DNA of 64,000 nucleotides from Sphingomonas sp. CL5.1 (GTDB lineage: Bacteria > Pseudomonadota > Alphaproteobacteria > Sphingomonadales > Sphingomonadaceae). A program made the position numbers and the translations under genes. Positions 6,663 through 64,000 of the stretch are shown here, piece by piece. The DNA is taken from the NCBI RefSeq assembly GCF_013344685.1, contig NZ_CP050137.1, positions 4,023,001-4,087,000 of the forward strand, read 5' to 3'. The first letter of the stretch is position 1. Each line of letters opens with the position of its first letter. The notes below the pieces were generated by a model that did not search any database, was not told where the DNA came from, and saw nothing but the letters and a program-made list of their open reading frames with translations.

Positions 6663-7463
6663 CTAAACCGCCGTCCGCCCATATTCCTGCTTCGTCACCG
6701 GATGGCTCGACGACAGGCCGCCGTCCACCGCGATCGCCTGCCCGTTGACGTAACCCGCATCGTCCGACGCGAGGAACAGCGCCACCTTCGCCAGTTCCTC
6801 CGGCGCCGCCCCCCGCCGCAGCGGGTTCAGCCGCCCGAGCCGGTCCATCTTCCCGGCGTCGCGCGCATAATCGAAGGTGGGCTTGGTCATCCCCGTCTCG
6901 GTCAGGCCGGGGCAGATCGCGTTGACGCGCACGTTCGAGCCGGAAAGCTGCTGCGCGGAGACCTTGGCAAGGTTGATGACACCCGCTTTCGACGCCGAAT
7001 AGGCGGGCGATCCCGCGCCGGAGCGGATACCGGCGACGCTGGCGGTAAGGATGATCGCGCCCTTGCCGCGTTCGGCGATGCGGGGAGCGGCGTGCTTCAC
7101 GGCGAGGAACGGACCGATCAGGTTGACGCGGAGCACCTCCGTGATGAGGTCCACGCTGGTGTCGAAGATGTTCGCCATGCCGCCGGAGATGCCGGCGTTG
7201 GCGAACATCACGTCCAGCCCGCCGTAACGGTCGCAGGCGAGCGCGACCGCTTTCTCCACATCGGCCTCCGACCCCGCATCCATGCGGATCGCCTCCGCCA
7301 CGCCGCCGGCGTCGCGGATCGCCTTCGCGGTTTCCTCCGCTCCGTCGGTCACGTCAGCGACGATCACCTTGCCGCCTTCCGCCGCGAACAGCGTCGCCGC
7401 CGCGCGGCCGATGCCGGAGCCGGCGCCGGTGACGATGATCGACTTGTCGGTGAACCTTGCCAT
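6663..7463 (-). CDS. SDR family oxidoreductase (last gene of the minus-strand operon)
   Basis: Classical short-chain dehydrogenase/reductase, 266 residues. It has the nucleotide-binding TGAGSGIG near residue 11, NAG near residue 90, and the catalytic serine plus YSASK motif near residue 155, then PG after the active site and the usual C-terminal [11 protein letters not shown]. The residue after the second strand is Asp (VIVADVTD), which favours NAD(H) over NADP(H). The open frame extends upstream to 7640, but the extension is low-complexity sequence overlapping the next gene; the ATG at 7463 gives the standard N-terminus. It lies 14 bases downstream of another SDR, at the end of the operon 11779-6663. 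Likely oxidises or reduces a hydroxy/keto group in the same acyl-CoA pathway; substrate not predictable. Confidence 0.9.
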
Positions 7464-7477
7464 TTCCGCTCTCCTGT

Positions 7478-8242
7478 TCAGATCGTCACGCCGCCGTCGA
7501 TCACCATCACCTGCCCGGTCATGAAGCCGCTCGCCTTCGACGCGAGATAGACGACCGCGCCGGCGATCTCCTCCGGCTCGCCGATGCGGCGCAGCGGGGT
7601 GGTGCGGTTGCGCTCGGCCACCGCCGCCTCGTCCTCCCACAAGGCTTTGGCGAAATCGGTCTTGATCAGGCCCGGCGCGATGCAGTTCACGCGGATGCCA
7701 TAGCGGCCATATTCATAGGCCAGATTGCGGGCGAGCTGCATGTCGGCCGCCTTGGAGATGCAATAGGCGCCGATCGTCGCCGATCCGCGCAGTCCGCCGA
7801 TCGAGGAGACGATGACGATCGATCCCTCGCCGCGCTCCTTCATCTCCGGCGCGACCATCGTGATCAGCCAGTGGTTCGAGATGATGTTGTTGTCGAGAAT
7901 CTTGCGGAACTGCTCGTCCGCGATCCCCTCCTGCGGGCCGTAATAGGGATTGGAGGCGGCGTTGCAGACGAGGCAGTCGATCCGGCCGAATGCGCGGCGC
8001 GTCTCGTCCACCAGATGCTGCAAGCCGGCCTTGTCGGAGATGTTGGCGGCGACGGCGATCGCCGTGCCCGCGCCGAAACGGTCGTTGATCTCCTTCGCCG
8101 CCGCATCGCAGGCGTCCTGCTTGCGGCTGGAGATGACCACCTTCGCCCCCTGCTCCGCGCAGGCGATCGCGGCGGACTTGCCGATCCCGCGCGACGATCC
8201 GGTGATGAGCACGACCTTGCCGGTCAGATCGAACAGCGACAT
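7478..8242 (-). CDS. SDR family oxidoreductase
   Basis: A second classical SDR of 254 residues, with TGSSRGIG near residue 14, the NAG position replaced by NAA ([12 protein letters not shown]), the active-site YCISK near residue 157, PG in [14 protein letters not shown] and a C-terminal [11 protein letters not shown]. The segment after strand two reads VISSRKQD, where the arginine suggests NADP(H) preference. The NAASNP variant is common in SDRs grouped with ACAD10/11-type dehydrogenases and the human DHRS4-like branch, which I recall only as a family trend. It lies 16 bases after the APH-type kinase gene and 14 bases before the next SDR, tight spacing for one transcript. In the levulinate pathway an SDR makes the 4-hydroxyacyl-CoA from the 4-keto form, a plausible role here. 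Confidence 0.9.
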
Positions 8243-8258
8243 ACGGAGCTTCCCCTTT

Positions 8259-9317
8259 TTACGCCCCCGCCTTCACGGCGAATTCCCATGCCGCCTCGGC
8301 CAGCGCCGGCACGCGGGCGCTGGCGGCCTCGGCATTGGCGTTGGAGGCGGTGCCGATCAGGAAACGCTTCCTGATCCCCTGCACGATCGCGGCGAGGCGG
8401 AACATGTTGAACGACAGATACCAGTTGAGATCGGGCAGCCCCTCCGGCCGGCTGGTCTTTTCGCAATAGCGCGCGACGACCTCCTCGACGGTCGGGATGC
8501 CGGTCTCCGGCCCCGTCAGCCCCATCACGCCGGAACGCCCCTCAGGCTGCGTCACCCAGGAGATCAGGAAATAGGAGAAGTCCGCCAGCGGATCGCCGAG
8601 CGTCGACAACTCCCAATCGAGCACGGCCGCGACGCGCGGCTCCAGCCCCGGCGCGAATTTCATATTGTCGCAACGATAGTCGCCGTGGACGATCGAGGTG
8701 CGCGTCTGCGGCGGCAGGGTGCGCGGCAGCCATTCGATCAGCCGCTCCATCGGCTCCATATGCTCGGTCTCGGCGCCGCGATATTGCTTGGTCCAGCGCG
8801 ACACCTGCCGCTCGAAATAATTGCCGGGGCGGCCGAATGTCTCCAGCCCCGCCGCGACATGATCGACGTTGTGAAGCTGCGCGAGCGTGTCGATCATCGC
8901 GTTGTAATGCGCGCGGCGCGTGTCGGCATCCATGCCGGGGAAGGCGCCGTCCCAGATCGTGCGTCCCTCAACCATCTCCATCACGTAGAAGGCGGAACCG
9001 ATCACCGCATCGTCCTCGCACAGCCCGAACGGGCGCGGCACGGGAAAGCCGGTGGGGTGCAGCCCGGCGATCACGCGATATTCGCGATCGACCGCATGAG
9101 CGGACGGCAGCAGTTCCCCCAGCGGCTTGCGGCGCAGCACGTAATCGCGCGCCGGGGTGCTGAGCTTGTAGGTCGGATTGGACTGGCCACCGGCGAATTT
9201 CGCATAGGTCAGCGGCCCGGCGAAATCCGGCACCCTGTCCTTCATCCATGCCGAGAGGCGATCGGTATCGAGCCGGTCGCGCTCGGCGATGTCGGTCTGG
9301 AGGCTGGTGTCGGTCAT
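8259..9317 (-). CDS. APH-fold phosphotransferase of the ACAD10/11-associated type
   Basis: Kinase of the aminoglycoside phosphotransferase fold, 352 residues, belonging to the group fused to or encoded beside ACAD10/11-like dehydrogenases, not an antibiotic-resistance enzyme. Visible motifs: GGQSNPTYKL glycine loop, the strand lysine pair in YVLRRKPLG, the glutamate in DREYRVI, the catalytic loop VHGDYRCDNMKF and the metal-binding VLDWELSTLGDPLADFSYF. In the levulinate pathway (LvaA) and in human ACAD10/11 this domain phosphorylates the 4-hydroxyl of a hydroxyacyl-CoA (established for those proteins). Its start overlaps the stop of the zinc alcohol dehydrogenase (ATGA). The ACAD11-type partner is two genes upstream. 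No small LvaB-like partner gene is present next to it, which is a difference from the Pseudomonas system. Confidence 0.88.
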   Translation of the reverse strand: MTDTSLQTDIAERDRLDTDRLSAWMKDRVPDFAGPLTYAKFAGGQSNPTYKLSTPARDYVLRRKPLGELLPSAHAVDREYRVIAGLHPTGFPVPRPFGLCEDDAVIGSAFYVMEMVEGRTIWDGAFPGMDADTRRAHYNAMIDTLAQLHNVDHVAAGLETFGRPGNYFERQVSRWTKQYRGAETEHMEPMERLIEWLPRTLPPQTRTSIVHGDYRCDNMKFAPGLEPRVAAVLDWELSTLGDPLADFSYFLISWVTQPEGRSGVMGLTGPETGIPTVEEVVARYCEKTSRPEGLPDLNWYLSFNMFRLAAIVQGIRKRFLIGTASNANAEAASARVPALAEAAWEFAVKAGA

Positions 9318-10402
9318 TGATCGAACACGATCACGCTGCGCGTCGTGTCGCCCTTGCGAAGCTCGTCGAACGCATGGTTGATGCTGGCGAGCGGCATCCG
9401 GTCCGCGATGATCGTGTCGAGGTCGAGCAGTCCGCGCTGATAGAAATCGACCAGCCGGGGGATATCGACCGGGAAGCGATTGTAGCCCATGATCCCGCCC
9501 TGGAGCCTTTTGCCGGACAGCAGGTCCATCGCGGAGAGGCCGACCTTCTCGCTGAGCGGCATCATCCCGAGGATCGTCGCCGTGCCGCCGCGACGCAGCA
9601 CCTTCACCGCGGTATCCGCCGATTGTGGGCGGCCGACCGCCTCGATCGCGTGATCGACGCCGCCCTTGGTGGCCTCCACCACTTCCGCGACAATATTTTC
9701 CGCGAGCGGGTCATAGCTATGGGTCGCGCCGAGCTTTTCGGCGATGGCACGCTTCTCCGGCACCGGATCGAGCGCGATGATCTTGCCCGCGCCCGCGATC
9801 TTCGCCGCGTTCACCGCCGCAAGCCCGATCCCGCCGCAGCCGACGACGCACACCGTCTCGCCCGGCGACACATCCGTGGTGTTGAACACCGCGCCCGCGC
9901 CTGTCGTCACCGCGCAGCCGATCAGCGCGGCGCGATCCAGCGGCATTTCCGGGTCGATCGCGACGCAGGCATGTTCGTGGACCAGCATCATCTCGGCATA
10001 GGCCGACAGGTTGAGCATCTGGTTGACCGGGCTGCCGTCCGGGAACCTCAGGCGCGGCTCCGCACCGGCCTGTCGCCGCGTCTCGCCGCCGAGGCAGAGA
10101 TACATGCGGCCCGTCACGCAAAATTCGCAATGGCCGCAGAAGGCGGAAAGACAGGTGACGACATGGTCGCCCGGCTTCACCGTGCGCACCTCCGAGCCGA
10201 CCGCCTCGACGATCCCCGCCGCCTCATGGCCGGGAATCGCCGGCAAGGGATGCGGATAGGCCCCGTCGATGAAATGCAGGTCGGAACGGCACACACCGCA
10301 GGCCAGCGTGCGGATCAGCACCTCATGCGCCGCCGGCTTGGACACGTCGACGTCCATCACCTCCAGCGGCTTCTTCGCTTCGAATAAAACGGCGGCCTTC
10401 AT
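9314..10402 (-). CDS. Zinc-dependent alcohol dehydrogenase, MDR family
   Basis: Medium-chain zinc alcohol dehydrogenase (362 residues), oxidising an alcohol with NAD. The catalytic zinc ligands are in LACGVCRSDLHF and IPGHEAAG plus the later IGCAVTTGAGAVF cysteine. The structural zinc lobe has the four cysteines in LSAFCGHCEFCVTGRMYLC. The cofactor fold shows VCVVGCGGIGLAAVN, followed by an aspartate (ALDP), typical of NAD. The layout resembles class III-like enzymes. I placed the start at MKAAVLFEAKKP (10402); the frame runs upstream to 10450 but that part has no family similarity. It is second in the operon, 69 bases after the ACAD gene and overlapping the kinase gene by four bases. It may oxidise a primary alcohol or aldehyde precursor of the acid; inference. 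Confidence 0.9.
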   Translation of the reverse strand: MKAAVLFEAKKPLEVMDVDVSKPAAHEVLIRTLACGVCRSDLHFIDGAYPHPLPAIPGHEAAGIVEAVGSEVRTVKPGDHVVTCLSAFCGHCEFCVTGRMYLCLGGETRRQAGAEPRLRFPDGSPVNQMLNLSAYAEMMLVHEHACVAIDPEMPLDRAALIGCAVTTGAGAVFNTTDVSPGETVCVVGCGGIGLAAVNAAKIAGAGKIIALDPVPEKRAIAEKLGATHSYDPLAENIVAEVVEATKGGVDHAIEAVGRPQSADTAVKVLRRGGTATILGMMPLSEKVGLSAMDLLSGKRLQGGIMGYNRFPVDIPRLVDFYQRGLLDLDTIIADRMPLASINHAFDELRKGDTTRSVIVFDQ

Positions 10403-10471
10403 GCGCCTCTCCAGTCGATCAGGTCGTCCCGGTCGCGGCCGGGGCGCCAAGGGTCAGTCAACAAGCGGCTT

Positions 10472-11779
10472 TCAGCGCGAGACGCCGATGTCCCCGCTCG
10501 AAATCTCCACGCCGCCGCGCGGCGCGGGGCGCTCGGCCTTCCAGTCGGCGTATTTGCCGAACTCGTCGCGTGCGATCGCGCGGCAATGGACCTCGTCCGG
10601 GCCGTCCGCGAAACGCAAGGTGCGCATCGCCGCCCAGGCATGGGCGAGGCCGAAATCCTCCGCCACCCCGCCGCCGCCATGCGCCTGGATCGCGTCGTCG
10701 AGAATCTGAAGCGCCATGTTCGGCGCTTGCACCTTGATCATCGCGATCTCGAGCTTGGCTGACTTGTTGCCGGCCTTGTCCATCATGTCCGCAGCCTTGA
10801 GGCACAACAGGCGCGTCATCTCGATATCGATGCGCGCGCGGGCGATGCGCTGCTCCCACACGCTATGGTCGGAGATGCGCTTGCCGAACGCGACGCGGCT
10901 GACGAGGCGCTGCGCCATCTTCTCGATCGCGACCTCCGCCACGCCGATGGTGCGCATGCAATGGTGGATGCGGCCCGGCCCGAGCCGCCCCTGCGCGATC
11001 TCGAAGCCCCGGCCCTCGCCGAGCAGCAGATTCTCCACCGGCACGCGCACGTCGGTGAAGCTCACCTCGCCATGGCCGTGCGGGGCATGGTCATAACCAT
11101 AGACGGAGAGCATCCGCTCGATCTTCACGCCCGGCGTGTCCATCGGCACGAGGATTTGGCTCTGCTGCTGGTGGCGCGAGCCCTCGAAGCTCGTCTTGCC
11201 CATCAGGATGCCGATCTTGCAACGCGGATCGCCCACGCCCGACGACCACCATTTGCGGCCGTTGATGACGTAATGATCGCCGTCACGCTCGATCCGCGTC
11301 TCGATATTGGTCGCATCGGAGGAGGCGACCTGCGGCTCGGTCATCAGGAAGACGGAGCGGATATCGCCGTTCATCAGCGGGCGCAGCCACTGCTCCTTCT
11401 GCTCGCGCGTGCCGTAGCGGTGCAGCACCTCCATGTTACCGGTGTCGGGCGCGGAGCAGTTGAAGCATTCGCTCGCCCAGCCGACCTTGCCCATCTCCTC
11501 GGCGCAGAGCGCATATTCGAGATTGGTGAGCTGGGTCCCCTCGAACTCGAACGTGTCGTCAACATGCGCCTGCCCGGAGTGCGGCGGCATGAAGAAATTC
11601 CACAGCCCGGCCTCTTTCGCCCTGGCCTTCACCTCCTCGATCACCGGGATCACCTTCCACGGATCGCCCTCGTGGTGCTGGCGCTCATATTCCGCCTGGC
11701 GGGGGCGGATGTGCTGATCGATAAAATCGCGTACCCGGTCGCGGAAATAGGTTTCGCGTTCGCTCAGCGTGAAGTCCAT
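10472..11779 (-). CDS. ACAD10/11-type acyl-CoA dehydrogenase, first gene of the operon
   Basis: Acyl-CoA dehydrogenase family enzyme of 435 residues, the branch that in animals forms the C-terminal half of ACAD10 and ACAD11 and in Pseudomonas is LvaC. Features: FFMPP near the N-terminus, [16 protein letters not shown] at the substrate/FAD strand, [16 protein letters not shown], and the diagnostic end [11 protein letters not shown] followed by [17 protein letters not shown]. Where MCAD has its catalytic glutamate this protein has Asp392, as in ACAD10/11. In the studied systems the enzyme acts with the kinase to eliminate phosphate from a 4-phosphoacyl-CoA and so move the oxygen to C3. Start ATG at 11779, 154 bases from the divergent regulator. 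It should lead the transcript running down to 6663. Confidence 0.9.
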
Positions 11780-11879
11780 CGCATCCCTCCAAAGCCTGTT
11801 CAGCCAGCGGCTCTAGACCGTACCCATCTTTCGGTAAAGCGCCCGAATCATCATTTATCCCCTACGAAAACGCCCTGCC

Positions 11880-11918
11880 GCAACAAGCGCGAAAGGGACT
11901 GTTTCTTCGAATTGTTGC
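11880..11918. promoter_or_regulatory. Candidate operator dyad in the divergent intergenic region
   Basis: In the 154-base gap between the ACAD gene and the tandem TetR gene, GCAACAA (11880-11886) is repeated inverted as TTGTTGC (11912-11918), with a nested GAAA/TTTC pair inside. It ends 15 bases before the regulator's ATG. Position and symmetry fit an operator for the adjacent TetR-type protein, controlling itself and possibly the minus-strand operon. I saw no convincing -35/-10 pair. This is a by-eye pattern; chance cannot be excluded. Confidence 0.3.
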
Positions 11919-11933: not shown

Positions 11934-13178
11934 ATGCACGGCACGGGGGATACCGGCCGGGGGGAGGAGACGAGCACGCGGCGCTTCCGGGCGAAACGTG
12001 ATGCGATCCTCGCCGCGGCCGCTGAGGCGATCAACGAACAGAGCGCGAAGGGCATGACCTTCGCCGATGTCGCGCGGCGCGTCGGGCTGAACACCACCAG
12101 CGTCACTTATTATTTCAAGCGCAAGGAGGACCTTGCCGCCGCCGCGTTCGAGCATACGCTGGATTCGCTGCTGTCGATGCTCGACGAGGCGATGGAGGAG
12201 GTGACGCCGGAGGCGCGGGTCGAGCGTTATCTCGCGCTCAACATGGCGCGGCTGATGCGCGTCCAGCGCGGCGAGGAACGGCAGATGGCCGGGCTTTCCG
12301 ACCTTCGCGCAATGGACGAGCCGGTGCGCTCGCGGTTGATGGCGCGGTGGCGCGAGGTGTTCCGCCGCACCCGCCTGCTGTGGGGCGCGGCGGACGCGCG
12401 GCAGCAGACCGACCTCAACGGCGCGCGCGCGCACGTGCTGCTGGAGAACACCTTCTGGCTACCGGTGTGGCTGGGCCGCTACGAGCCGGATCAATATCCC
12501 CGTGCCGAGGCGCGGCTGATGGAGGTGTTCCGCCACGGCATCGCACGGCCGGAAGCCGAATGGCGGCCAGCGCCGATCGACCTGCCGCATGACGAGGCGG
12601 TGCCGGGGCGCGAGGCGTTCCTGCTGGCGGCGACGCGGCTCATCAACGAGCTTGGCTATCGCGGTGCCTCGGTGCAGCGCATCGCATCGGAGCTGAACGT
12701 CACCAAGGGCAGCTTCTACCACCATCTCGACGCCAAGGACGATCTGGTCGTCGCCTGCTACAAGCGCAGCTTCGATACGATCGCGGCGGCGCAGCGGCTC
12801 GCCGACGAGCGCGGCGGAAGCCATTGGGACCGGCTGGCGGGCACGATCGCGACCTTGCTCGACGTGCAATTCTCGGAGCTTGGGCCGCTGCTGCGCACCA
12901 CCGCGCTCACCGCGCTACCGCCCGGCGTGCGCAATGTGATGGTGGAACGATCGAACCGCATCGCGCGCCGCTTCGCCGGCACGATCTCCGACGGGATCGC
13001 GGAAGGGACGATCCGCGCGGTCGACGCGCTGATCGCGGCGCAGGCGCTGATGGCCTTCCTCAACGCCGCATTCGACATGCGCAAATGGGCGTGGTCGATG
13101 CCGCGCGAGCGGGCGATCGCGCTCTACGCCTCCACCCTCACCTTCGGCCTGTTCGACGACCGGGTTATCGCGGAATAG
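11934..13178 (+). CDS. Tandem double-TetR transcriptional regulator
   Basis: A 414-residue DNA-binding protein made of two consecutive TetR/AcrR units in a single chain; ordinary TetR regulators are about 190-220 residues and act as dimers. The first helix-turn-helix lies at about residues 20-70 (MTFADVARRVGLNTTSVTYYFK), followed by an all-helical ligand-type domain. A second complete TetR unit begins near residue 218, with its helix-turn-helix in ASVQRIASELNVTKGSFYHHL. The two units are clearly different in sequence, so this is an old fusion or duplication, not a sequencing artefact. It is divergent from the ACAD/ADH/kinase/SDR operon and convergent with the acyl-CoA dehydrogenase at 13247, so it probably senses an acyl-CoA intermediate of this region. 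The inverted repeat just upstream is a candidate binding site. Confidence 0.9.
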   Translation: MHGTGDTGRGEETSTRRFRAKRDAILAAAAEAINEQSAKGMTFADVARRVGLNTTSVTYYFKRKEDLAAAAFEHTLDSLLSMLDEAMEEVTPEARVERYLALNMARLMRVQRGEERQMAGLSDLRAMDEPVRSRLMARWREVFRRTRLLWGAADARQQTDLNGARAHVLLENTFWLPVWLGRYEPDQYPRAEARLMEVFRHGIARPEAEWRPAPIDLPHDEAVPGREAFLLAATRLINELGYRGASVQRIASELNVTKGSFYHHLDAKDDLVVACYKRSFDTIAAAQRLADERGGSHWDRLAGTIATLLDVQFSELGPLLRTTALTALPPGVRNVMVERSNRIARRFAGTISDGIAEGTIRAVDALIAAQALMAFLNAAFDMRKWAWSMPRERAIALYASTLTFGLFDDRVIAE

Positions 13179-63180: not shown

Positions 63181-64000
63181 GGTCAGGACTCGTTGATCAG
63201 AGCCAGAAGATGACGGTGGCTGCGAGTGCGATGGCAGAGAAGAACACCCGCGGGCACCGGTCGTAGCGTGTGGCGACGCGCCGCCAGTCCTTGAGGCGGC
63301 CGAACATGATCTCGATGCGGTTACGGCGTCTGTACCGGCGCTTGTCGTATTTGACGGGCTGCAGCCGAGATTTGCGGCCCGGAATGCAGGGCTTGATGCC
63401 CTTCGCCTGCAAAGCCTCTCTGAACCAGTCGGCGTCATAGCCGCGGTCACCCAGCAGCCATTTCGCTTTGGGCAGGTCGTCCAACAGAGCCGTAGCTCCG
63501 GTGTAGTCGCTGATCTGCCCGGCGGTCATGAAGAAGCTGAGCGGGCGGCCGTTGGCGTCGGTGACGGCGTGAAGCTTGGTGTTCATGCCGCCCTTGGTGC
63601 GGCCGATCAGGCGCCCGAGATCCCCTTTTTAACCCGCAGGCTCGAAGCTGTGCGGTGCGCCTTCAAATAGGTCGCATCAATCATGATCGTCGCTGGTTCG
63701 GCGCCTTCAGCAGCCAGCCCTTCCATCATGCGAAGGAACACGCCCATATCGCCCCATCGCTTCCACCGGTTGTACAGCGTCTTGTGGGGGCCATACTCCT
63801 TGGGCGCATCGCGCCAGCGTAGCCCGTTGCGGTTCACGAATACGATGCCGCTCAACACCCGCCGATCGTCAACACGCGGCTTGCCGTGGCTCTTGGGAAA
63901 ATAGGGGCGCAGACGATCCATCTGCTCGTCAGTCAGCCAGTACAAGTCGCTCATTCTCAGTCTCCTCACGGAGCCTGAATCAGATCGCGCTTCTCATATC
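63181..64000 (-). mobile_element. IS5-family insertion sequence (IS427-like), right end not certain
   Basis: An insertion element read on the minus strand, with its transposase end directly after the ABC permease stop (first likely IS bases GGTCAGGACTC at 63181). The transposase type with two overlapping frames and -1 shifting marks the IS427-like group of IS5, which often inserts at TA or CTAG; the flanking ACTAG fits. The other end should lie near or just beyond 64000, since I could not match the final 40 bases as an inverted repeat of the left end. Confidence 0.7.
63197..63954 (-). CDS. IS5-family transposase, two frames joined by -1 frameshift
   Basis: DDE transposase encoded in two frames. 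Frame A runs from ATG 63954 (preceded by GAGGAG) to TGA at 63607: MSDLYWLTDEQMDRLRPYFP, then VFVNRNGLRWRDAPKEYGPH and the first catalytic aspartate in ATIMIDATYLKAHRTA. Frame B gives the rest down to 63197: RLIGRTKGGMNTKLHAVTDA, LLGDRGYDADWFREAL with the second Asp and RNRIEIMFGRLKDWRRVATRYD with the catalytic Glu. Frame B is entered by slipping back one base at TTAAAAAGGGG (63622-63632), where AAA AAG is read before GGG; the joined product then has KKGDLGRLIGRTKGG, as expected for full-length homologues. All three catalytic residues are present, so it may be active. Confidence 0.85.

What the first reader, a model, noticed from the sequence alone, without database searches (positions are those of the whole stretch)
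6663..11779. Split ACAD10/11-type module: kinase plus dehydrogenase for 4-hydroxyacyl-CoA, with no LvaB
One operon encodes an ACAD10/11-type dehydrogenase (ADGPDEVH end, Asp392 at the usual Glu position), an APH-fold kinase (HGDYRCDN, DWELSTLGDP), a zinc alcohol dehydrogenase and two SDRs. In animal ACAD10/11 the first two are fused and phosphorylate then isomerise 4-hydroxyacyl-CoA; in Pseudomonas lvaABCDE they are separate and serve levulinate. Here the small LvaB partner is missing and an alcohol dehydrogenase is added, so the substrate may be different, for instance a hydroxylated fatty or terpenoid acid.
Basis: partly seen in the sequence, partly recalled or inferred. Interest (0 to 1): 0.7.

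Follow-up and report, generated by a model that had tools for sequence, protein, structure and literature searches.

The report
Sphingomonas operon for 4-hydroxy fatty acids
A conserved Sphingomonas gene cluster appears to encode, as separate enzymes, the kinase and dehydrogenase that animals fuse into ACAD10/ACAD11 to break down 4-hydroxy fatty acids; the helper protein LvaB that seemed to be missing goes with a different branch of these kinases and is not expected here.

Summary
Window 6663-11779 (minus strand) is an operon-like run ACAD - zinc ADH - APH kinase - SDR - SDR. The ACAD is 57% identical to ACAD11 over the aligned part and keeps its phosphate-site residues and catalytic Asp392. 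The kinase keeps the catalytic residues and two arginines shared with ACAD11. A split ACAD10/11-type 4-hydroxyacyl-CoA module is well supported by sequence; no activity is measured. The "no LvaB, so another substrate" argument fails: LvaB is DUF6285, kinases beside DUF6285 form one side of a branch, apart from the group with ACAD11 and this kinase, and an ACAD10 part with the kinase domain worked without LvaB (PMC11342911, passages). New here: ACAD-ADH-kinase order in 58 of 81 related loci, 56 of these with a divergent double-TetR gene, and two boxes conserved in 55 and 53 of 57 regulator-ACAD intergenic regions, each found once in this genome at the limits tried. Substrate unproven; I favour mid-chain or omega-hydroxylated fatty acids whose beta-oxidation stalls at 4-hydroxyacyl-CoA. 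New member of a known kind.

The parts
10472..11779 (-). ACAD10/11-type acyl-CoA dehydrogenase; R265, H273, R276 (phosphate site), R270 (general ACAD Arg) and D392 correspond to mouse R626, H634, R637, R631 and D753
   Evidence: 57% identity to ACAD11 (8v3u) over the aligned part and motif alignment; PDB search; residue roles from PMC12440821 (passages)
9314..10402 (-). Zinc-dependent alcohol dehydrogenase, nearest solved relatives class I/III ADH; overlaps the kinase start by 4 nt
   Evidence: Pfam; PDB; start codon checked
8259..9317 (-). APH-fold kinase grouping with ACAD11 and 3dxp; catalytic D213, N218; R78 (next to the alphaC Glu) and R170 (= R176 of ACAD11)
7478..8242 (-). SDR a (only PDB matches at E <= 1e-45: DHRS4)
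   Evidence: not found behind the kinase in 14 of 58 core loci, in 11 of which SDRb is kept
6663..7463 (-). SDR b
   Evidence: found behind the kinase in 55 of 58 core loci
11934..13178 (+). Divergent regulator with two TetR-like halves in one chain (25% identical to each other over 126 aligned positions)
   Evidence: divergent beside the ACAD in 56 of 58 core loci
11814..11838 (-). Conserved box A, TTTACCGAA-N4-SGGTAYGGNCTA, around the near-palindrome TACCG-N6-CGGTA (one mismatch here); candidate operator or promoter element
   Evidence: CTTTACCGAA-N5-GGTAYGG (up to 1 mismatch) in 55 of 57 intergenic regions, mononucleotide-shuffled mean 0.0; only site in the own genome at up to 3 mismatches, where the reversed control pattern also gives one match
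11892..11909 (-). Conserved box B, CGAAGNNACAGTSYYTTT; candidate second operator
   Evidence: GAAGNNACAGTCCCTTT (up to 2 mismatches) in 53 of 57 intergenic regions, shuffled mean 0.0; only site in the own genome at up to 1 mismatch, control 0

Best explanation
It is a regulated catabolic operon. The APH kinase phosphorylates the 4-hydroxyl of a 4-hydroxyacyl-CoA with ATP. The ACAD then removes the phosphate and shifts the double bond, using FAD as an internal redox carrier, to give a 2-enoyl-CoA that enters beta-oxidation. Shown here: open genes, close homology to ACAD11, conserved active-site residues, conserved operon order and conserved boxes in the divergent promoter region. Inferred: the reaction itself (by homology to tested ACAD10/11 and bacterial orthologues), control by the double TetR, and the roles of the ADH and SDRs. 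My preferred reading is that these oxidise or reduce other hydroxyl or keto groups of the same substrate, a mid-chain- or omega-hydroxylated fatty acid (cutin-type dihydroxy acid, hydroxystearate, gamma-lactone) whose beta-oxidation reaches a 4-hydroxyacyl-CoA. The kinase should work without LvaB.
For: ACAD: 57% identity to ACAD11; phosphate-site Arg, His, Arg and the catalytic Asp kept. Kinase: in the 28-row group with ACAD11 and 3dxp, split 99/99 from the LvaA group; R78 and R170 kept, as in 81 of 81 relatives found by similarity to it. ACAD-ADH-kinase order in 58 of 81 loci, 56 of them with the divergent double TetR. Boxes A and B in 55 and 53 of 57 intergenic regions, one site each in this genome. 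Published: an ACAD10 part with the kinase domain made 4-phosphohydroxyhexanoyl-CoA, and bacterial orthologues replaced either half (PMC11342911, passages). Mid-chain hydroxy acids give 4-hydroxy acids by beta-oxidation in yeasts (PMC3546705, passages).
Against: No activity was measured. No acyl-CoA synthetase is among the five operon genes, so acid and chain length cannot be read off. The genome has no oleate hydratase match. In 25 of 40 alphaproteobacterial stretches around a related ACAD no kinase was found within about 7 kb, some of them cut by contig ends, so the pair is often not co-located. One locus with ACAD, kinase, double TetR and SDRb, L083, shows no ADH, and L075 has a 73% identical kinase beside a different ACAD (33%). 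This genome has other such pairs. The cutin-type substrate rests on chemistry, not data.
Confidence: 0.72

Rival explanations
1. An lva-like route for short 4-oxo or 4-hydroxy acids (levulinate, 4-hydroxyvalerate): an SDR plays the LvaD role and the kinase/ACAD the LvaA/LvaC roles, without LvaB.
For: Same two core reactions; the lva operon on the plasmid also holds an SDR-type gene. A Pseudomonas citronellolis levulinate cluster was reported without lvaB (PMC6692424, passages).
Against: The ACAD is 33% identical to the plasmid LvaC and 57% to ACAD11; the kinase is in the other group; SDRa is 34% identical to the plasmid lva SDR; no synthetase among the operon genes. The genome has a nearer LvaC relative at 2026 kb (52%).
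Confidence: 0.17
2. Clearance of lipid-peroxidation products: ADH and the DHRS4-like SDR process 4-hydroxyalkenals; kinase and ACAD finish the 4-hydroxyacyl-CoA.
For: 4-hydroxynonenal is a named source of 4-hydroxy acids in animals (PMC11342911 section 14); SDRa resembles DHRS4 and the ADH class I/III ADH.
Against: Both are broad families. No ALDH is among the operon genes; bacteria make few polyunsaturated fatty acids (recalled). Boxes found only at this promoter suit a nutrient as well as a stress.
Confidence: 0.12
3. The kinase/ACAD pair acts on an unusual 4-hydroxyacyl-CoA, for example an alicyclic, terpenoid or steroid side-chain acid.
For: Other ACADs flank the operon in the window, with PimC/PimD and IpdE2 models as best NCBIfam matches, far below cut-off; the ADH arrangement was seen only in this lineage.
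Against: The flanking ACADs are not constant neighbours: not found in many loci. No monooxygenase or ring-opening family among the operon genes.
Confidence: 0.14
4. The kinase and the ACAD share an operon but not a pathway.
For: In 25 of 40 stretches a related ACAD has no kinase found nearby; kinase with the two SDRs but no ACAD beside it occurs in L085 and L097.
Against: Fusion of the two in animals and biochemical coupling in ACAD10/11 (PMC12440821 and PMC11342911, abstracts and passages), and ACAD-ADH-kinase order in 58 of 81 loci.
Confidence: 0.05

Closest known systems
ACAD10/ACAD11 (animal fused kinase-ACAD, 4-hydroxyacyl-CoA)
   Same: ACAD half 57% and kinase 38% identical to ACAD11 over aligned parts; same catalytic and phosphate-site residues
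   Different: Two separate genes with an ADH gene between them, two SDRs and a double-TetR regulator; ACAD11's kinase is in the same large group but not the nearest row
Bacterial ACAD10/11 orthologues tested in vitro (the Burkholderia pair of PMC11342911), and the solved kinase 3dxp
   Same: Split kinase and ACAD; the published pair replaces either half of ACAD10 (passages); 3dxp is 51% identical to this kinase
   Different: Sequence and gene surroundings of the published pair were not compared here
Pseudomonas lvaABCDE (levulinate operon)
   Same: Kinase + ACAD + SDR; same two-step chemistry (PMC6692424 and PMC11342911, passages)
   Different: LvaA (plasmid copy) lies in the DUF6285 group, 23% identical to this kinase; LvaC (plasmid copy) 33% identical to this ACAD; LvaB and a synthetase present and no ADH annotated in the plasmid operon
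Pseudomonas citronellolis LA18 lva cluster
   Same: Reported without lvaB (PMC6692424, passages)
   Different: Its kinase is 59% identical to LvaA, so of the LvaA kind; it has a histidine phosphatase gene

Membership tests
ACAD10/11-type acyl-CoA dehydrogenase | Asp instead of Glu as catalytic base in the ADGPDEVH segment | tested here: met
   D392; role from PMC12440821 passages
ACAD10/11-type acyl-CoA dehydrogenase | HCMR motif and upstream Arg that hold the 4-phosphate | tested here: met
   R265, H273, R276
ACAD10/11-type acyl-CoA dehydrogenase | Closer to ACAD11 than to ordinary ACADs | tested here: met
   ACAD11 chains and 4hr3 score 429-456 bits, the next chain 144 bits
ACAD10/11-type kinase | Catalytic HGD..N and metal-binding DWE segment | tested here: met
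   D213, N218, DWELSTLGDP
ACAD10/11-type kinase | CoA-groove arginine R176 | tested here: met
   R170
ACAD10/11-type kinase | R86, said to neighbour the alphaC Glu | tested here: inconclusive
   Paper number 86 did not fall on an Arg in the chain as printed; the Arg directly before the alphaC Glu (R78 here) is conserved
ACAD10/11-type kinase | Groups with ACAD10/11 in a tree | tested here: met
   28-row group with ACAD11 and 3dxp, 99/99; ACAD10 itself was not included
ACAD10/11 protein | Kinase and ACAD fused in one chain | tested here: not met
   Separate genes
lva operon | LvaB (DUF6285) next to the kinase | tested here: not met
   No DUF6285 in the window; the genome's only match at E <= 0.001 is at 4353 kb beside an LvaA-group kinase
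lva operon | Kinase in the LvaA group | tested here: not met
4-hydroxyacyl-CoA pathway | Phosphorylation then elimination on 4-hydroxyacyl-CoA | not testable with these tools
   needs enzyme assays

The most novel reading that the evidence does not exclude
Two linked claims. First, an operon under a single-chain double TetR that reads two different operators serves plant-surface hydroxy acids such as 10,16-dihydroxyhexadecanoate: the ADH oxidises the omega-hydroxyl, three beta-oxidation turns leave a 4-hydroxyacyl-CoA, and kinase plus ACAD remove the 4-hydroxyl. Second, LvaB/DUF6285 is a CoA-docking subunit that makes up for the two arginines absent from the LvaA kinase group, so these kinases divide into self-sufficient and LvaB-dependent forms.
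Probability: 0.17. Interest if true: 0.6.

Novelty: new member of a known kind. Interest (0 to 1): 0.38.

Why it matters
It offers a bacterial version of the ACAD10/11 pathway with its own regulator and candidate operators, so that inducers could reveal the natural substrate. It also suggests when LvaB is to be expected: with kinases of the LvaA/DUF6285 group, none of whose 29 sampled members has both arginines found in ACAD11 and in this kinase. That makes the open question of what LvaB does directly testable.

Tried and rejected
Missing LvaB as evidence for a new substrate: rejected.

Substrate from neighbours: amidase, ACADs, acyl-CoA thioesterases, DUF885, MFS, GST, LrgB, SDR and AMP-ligase genes near the operon give no single pathway, and the flanking ACADs are not constant across loci.

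Oleate hydratase as a source of hydroxystearate: no match in the genome. Cutinase was not searched.

A regulon from the two boxes: no second site in the genome for either at the limits tried, so no substrate hint from co-regulated genes.

Naming the ADH substrate by homologues: the 120 listed of 8000 scored gave only general names.

Kinase next to related ACADs with 1.5 kb flanks: found in 5 of 30, but the flank is too short (the window's own pair would be missed); repeated with up to 7 kb for 40 of 74 motif sites, where some stretches are cut by contig ends; the other 34 sites were not fetched at that size.

Literature: the 10 papers listed of 32 show by title and abstract no Sphingomonas operon of this kind, and no held paper names DUF6285. 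The library lacks most subscription journals, and the Rand 2017 lva paper is not held, so its content is second-hand. One search gave no paper that settles ADH activity on omega-hydroxy acids.
Full report
What is there. The window is part of a 4.57 Mb genome in two contigs; the closest relative of its kinase is 98% identical and comes from a metagenome-assembled Sphingomonas (sp. 67-36). On the minus strand, 11779 down to 6663, lie an acyl-CoA dehydrogenase, a zinc alcohol dehydrogenase, an APH-fold kinase and two SDRs, with a 69 nt gap, a 4 nt overlap, and gaps of 16 and 14 nt. The ATG starts of the ADH (10402) and SDRb (7463) lie one codon from the ends used in most searches. A regulator with two TetR-like halves is transcribed divergently from 11934.

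ACAD. ACAD11 chains and 4hr3 (429-456 bits) lead the other solved relatives (144 bits and less). In an alignment with ACAD11 (8v3u), LvaC from two Pseudomonadaceae plasmids and paralogues of this genome, the window protein keeps R265, H273, R276 and D392, the equivalents of mouse R626, H634, R637 and D753, which hold the 4-phosphate and act as base, and R270 (R631), shared by ACADs in general (PMC12440821, passages). Two ordinary ACADs of this genome (2028 and 4351 kb) lack the phosphate-site set. The protein is 57% identical to ACAD11 and 33% to the plasmid LvaC. PMC11342911 gives 62% and 56% for LvaC against ACAD10 and ACAD11 (passages), whereas the plasmid LvaC is 33% identical to ACAD11; I could not settle this, as KT2440 LvaC was not at hand.

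Kinase. It has the catalytic Asp and Asn and an Arg at the R176 position of ACAD11. In a 33-row tree it falls in a 28-row group with ACAD11 and 3dxp, separated 99/99 from LvaA and three own-genome kinases. Within it ACAD11 sits with 3dxp and others, not next to the window kinase. One own kinase (172 kb, long branch) changes sides between the trees. The paper's R86 did not land on an Arg in the printed chain, but the Arg before the alphaC Glu is conserved.

LvaB. The annotated LvaB of the plasmid lva operon is DUF6285. DUF6285 occurs in 36 of 142 alphaproteobacterial genomes (own included), 38 sites. I examined 29 loci other than the own one; all 29 have a kinase within 1.5 kb. These 29 kinases, two LvaA and the own-genome kinase at 4352 kb form one side of a single branch (support 96, FastTree, with a warning about two long branches inside the group). 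None of the 29 has both arginines (1 has the alphaC one, 2 the R176 one), while 81 of 81 relatives of the window kinase, chosen by similarity to it, have both. No DUF6285 was found in the 80 relative loci, the window, or 30 short loci around HHCMR-type ACADs. The contrast follows a group in a tree, so it is an association and no proof of function. ACAD partners can be mixed: 10 of 38 DUF6285 sites have an LvaC-type and 4 of 38 an ACAD10/11-type ACAD motif within 3 kb, and the own 2025 kb kinase of the ACAD11 group sits beside an LvaC-type ACAD. A published P. citronellolis cluster has an LvaA-type kinase with no lvaB found nearby (PMC6692424, passages), which speaks against a strict rule.

Conservation of the operon. 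Of 81 loci examined (80 genome contigs plus one unnamed same-genus genome) 58 have ACAD-ADH-kinase in this order; 56 of these have the divergent double TetR, 44 both SDRs and 11 only SDRb. The other 23 include contigs cut short and more distant relatives without the ADH, but also L083, which has the double TetR, ACAD, kinase and SDRb with no ADH found, and L075, a 73% identical kinase beside a different ACAD. Class-wide, the HHCMR-type motif occurs in 47 of 142 genomes and the LvaC-type motif in 29 of 142. Of 40 stretches fetched from 74 HHCMR sites, 15 have a kinase within about 7 kb and only the same-genus one has the ADH in between. The chemistry is thus widespread; in what I sampled the ADH-containing operon belongs to Sphingomonas and near kin.

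Regulation. Between the regulator and the ACAD two boxes are conserved: CTTTACCGAA-N5-GGTAYGG, holding the near-palindrome TACCG-N6-CGGTA, in 55 of 57 intergenic regions (up to 1 mismatch), and GAAGNNACAGTCCCTTT in 53 of 57 (up to 2 mismatches), against mononucleotide-shuffled means of 0.0 to 0.3. The regions come from related species, so conservation partly reflects descent, but in 14 aligned regions much of the rest has diverged. Each box has one site in the genome at the limits tried (in one search the reversed control pattern also gave one match at up to 3 mismatches). Two unlike TetR halves and two unlike boxes suggest one half per box; this is inference.

Function. By homology the kinase phosphorylates a 4-hydroxyacyl-CoA and the ACAD eliminates the phosphate to a 2-enoyl-CoA, as shown for ACAD10/11 and bacterial orthologues (PMC12440821, abstract and passages; PMC11342911, abstract, passages and sections 13 and 14). 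Which substrate is open. Mid-chain hydroxy acids become 4-hydroxy acids by beta-oxidation in yeasts, for example ricinoleate to 4-hydroxydecanoate (PMC3546705, passages). By the same arithmetic 10,16-dihydroxyhexadecanoate would give 4,10-dihydroxydecanoyl-CoA; the ADH could oxidise its end. That cutin contains this acid, and that class III ADHs accept omega-hydroxy acids, is recalled. Some of the loci come from species with plant-related names (titles), which fits but does not test the idea. This genome has no oleate hydratase match. It has further kinase/phospho-ACAD pairs at 738-740, 2025-2026 and 2545-2546 kb, so each may serve different hydroxy acids.

Verdict. It is a new member of a known kind with a lineage-specific operon and regulator.

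Noticed in passing
own genome C1:733000-749000 (L016:8426-15105): Beside the second ACAD10/11-type pair at 738-740 kb lies a long ORF with Radical_SAM and CofH_C domains, as in F420 biosynthesis; other ORFs there look F420-related by eye only.
   Followed up: partly
own genome C1:1375111-1376259: A second LvaC-type ACAD; the nearest APH match is about 16 kb away.
   Followed up: no
L018:8519-8959 (own genome about 173 kb): A 146-aa ORF overlapping the end of the 172 kb kinase frame resembles DUF6285 at its start by eye but has no Pfam match and was not hit by the DUF6285 profile; it may be a diverged LvaB-like partner.
   Followed up: partly
own genome C1:4352464-4353701: LvaA-group kinase with the genome's only DUF6285 match, beside a divergent ordinary-type ACAD that lacks the phosphate-site motif.
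   Followed up: partly
L009, L085, L097: Relatives of this kinase followed by both SDRs with no ACAD10/11-type ACAD next to them (in L085 one lies about 7 kb away; L009 was only).
   Followed up: no
window 63197-63969 and L018:11631-12403: Two adjacent ORFs with the same starting residues in both places, apparently copies of one insertion-sequence transposase in two frames.
   Followed up: no
40 stretches L181-L220: In 25 of 40 alphaproteobacterial stretches an HHCMR-type ACAD has no APH kinase found within about 7 kb; the kinase must be elsewhere or the enzyme acts alone.
   Followed up: no
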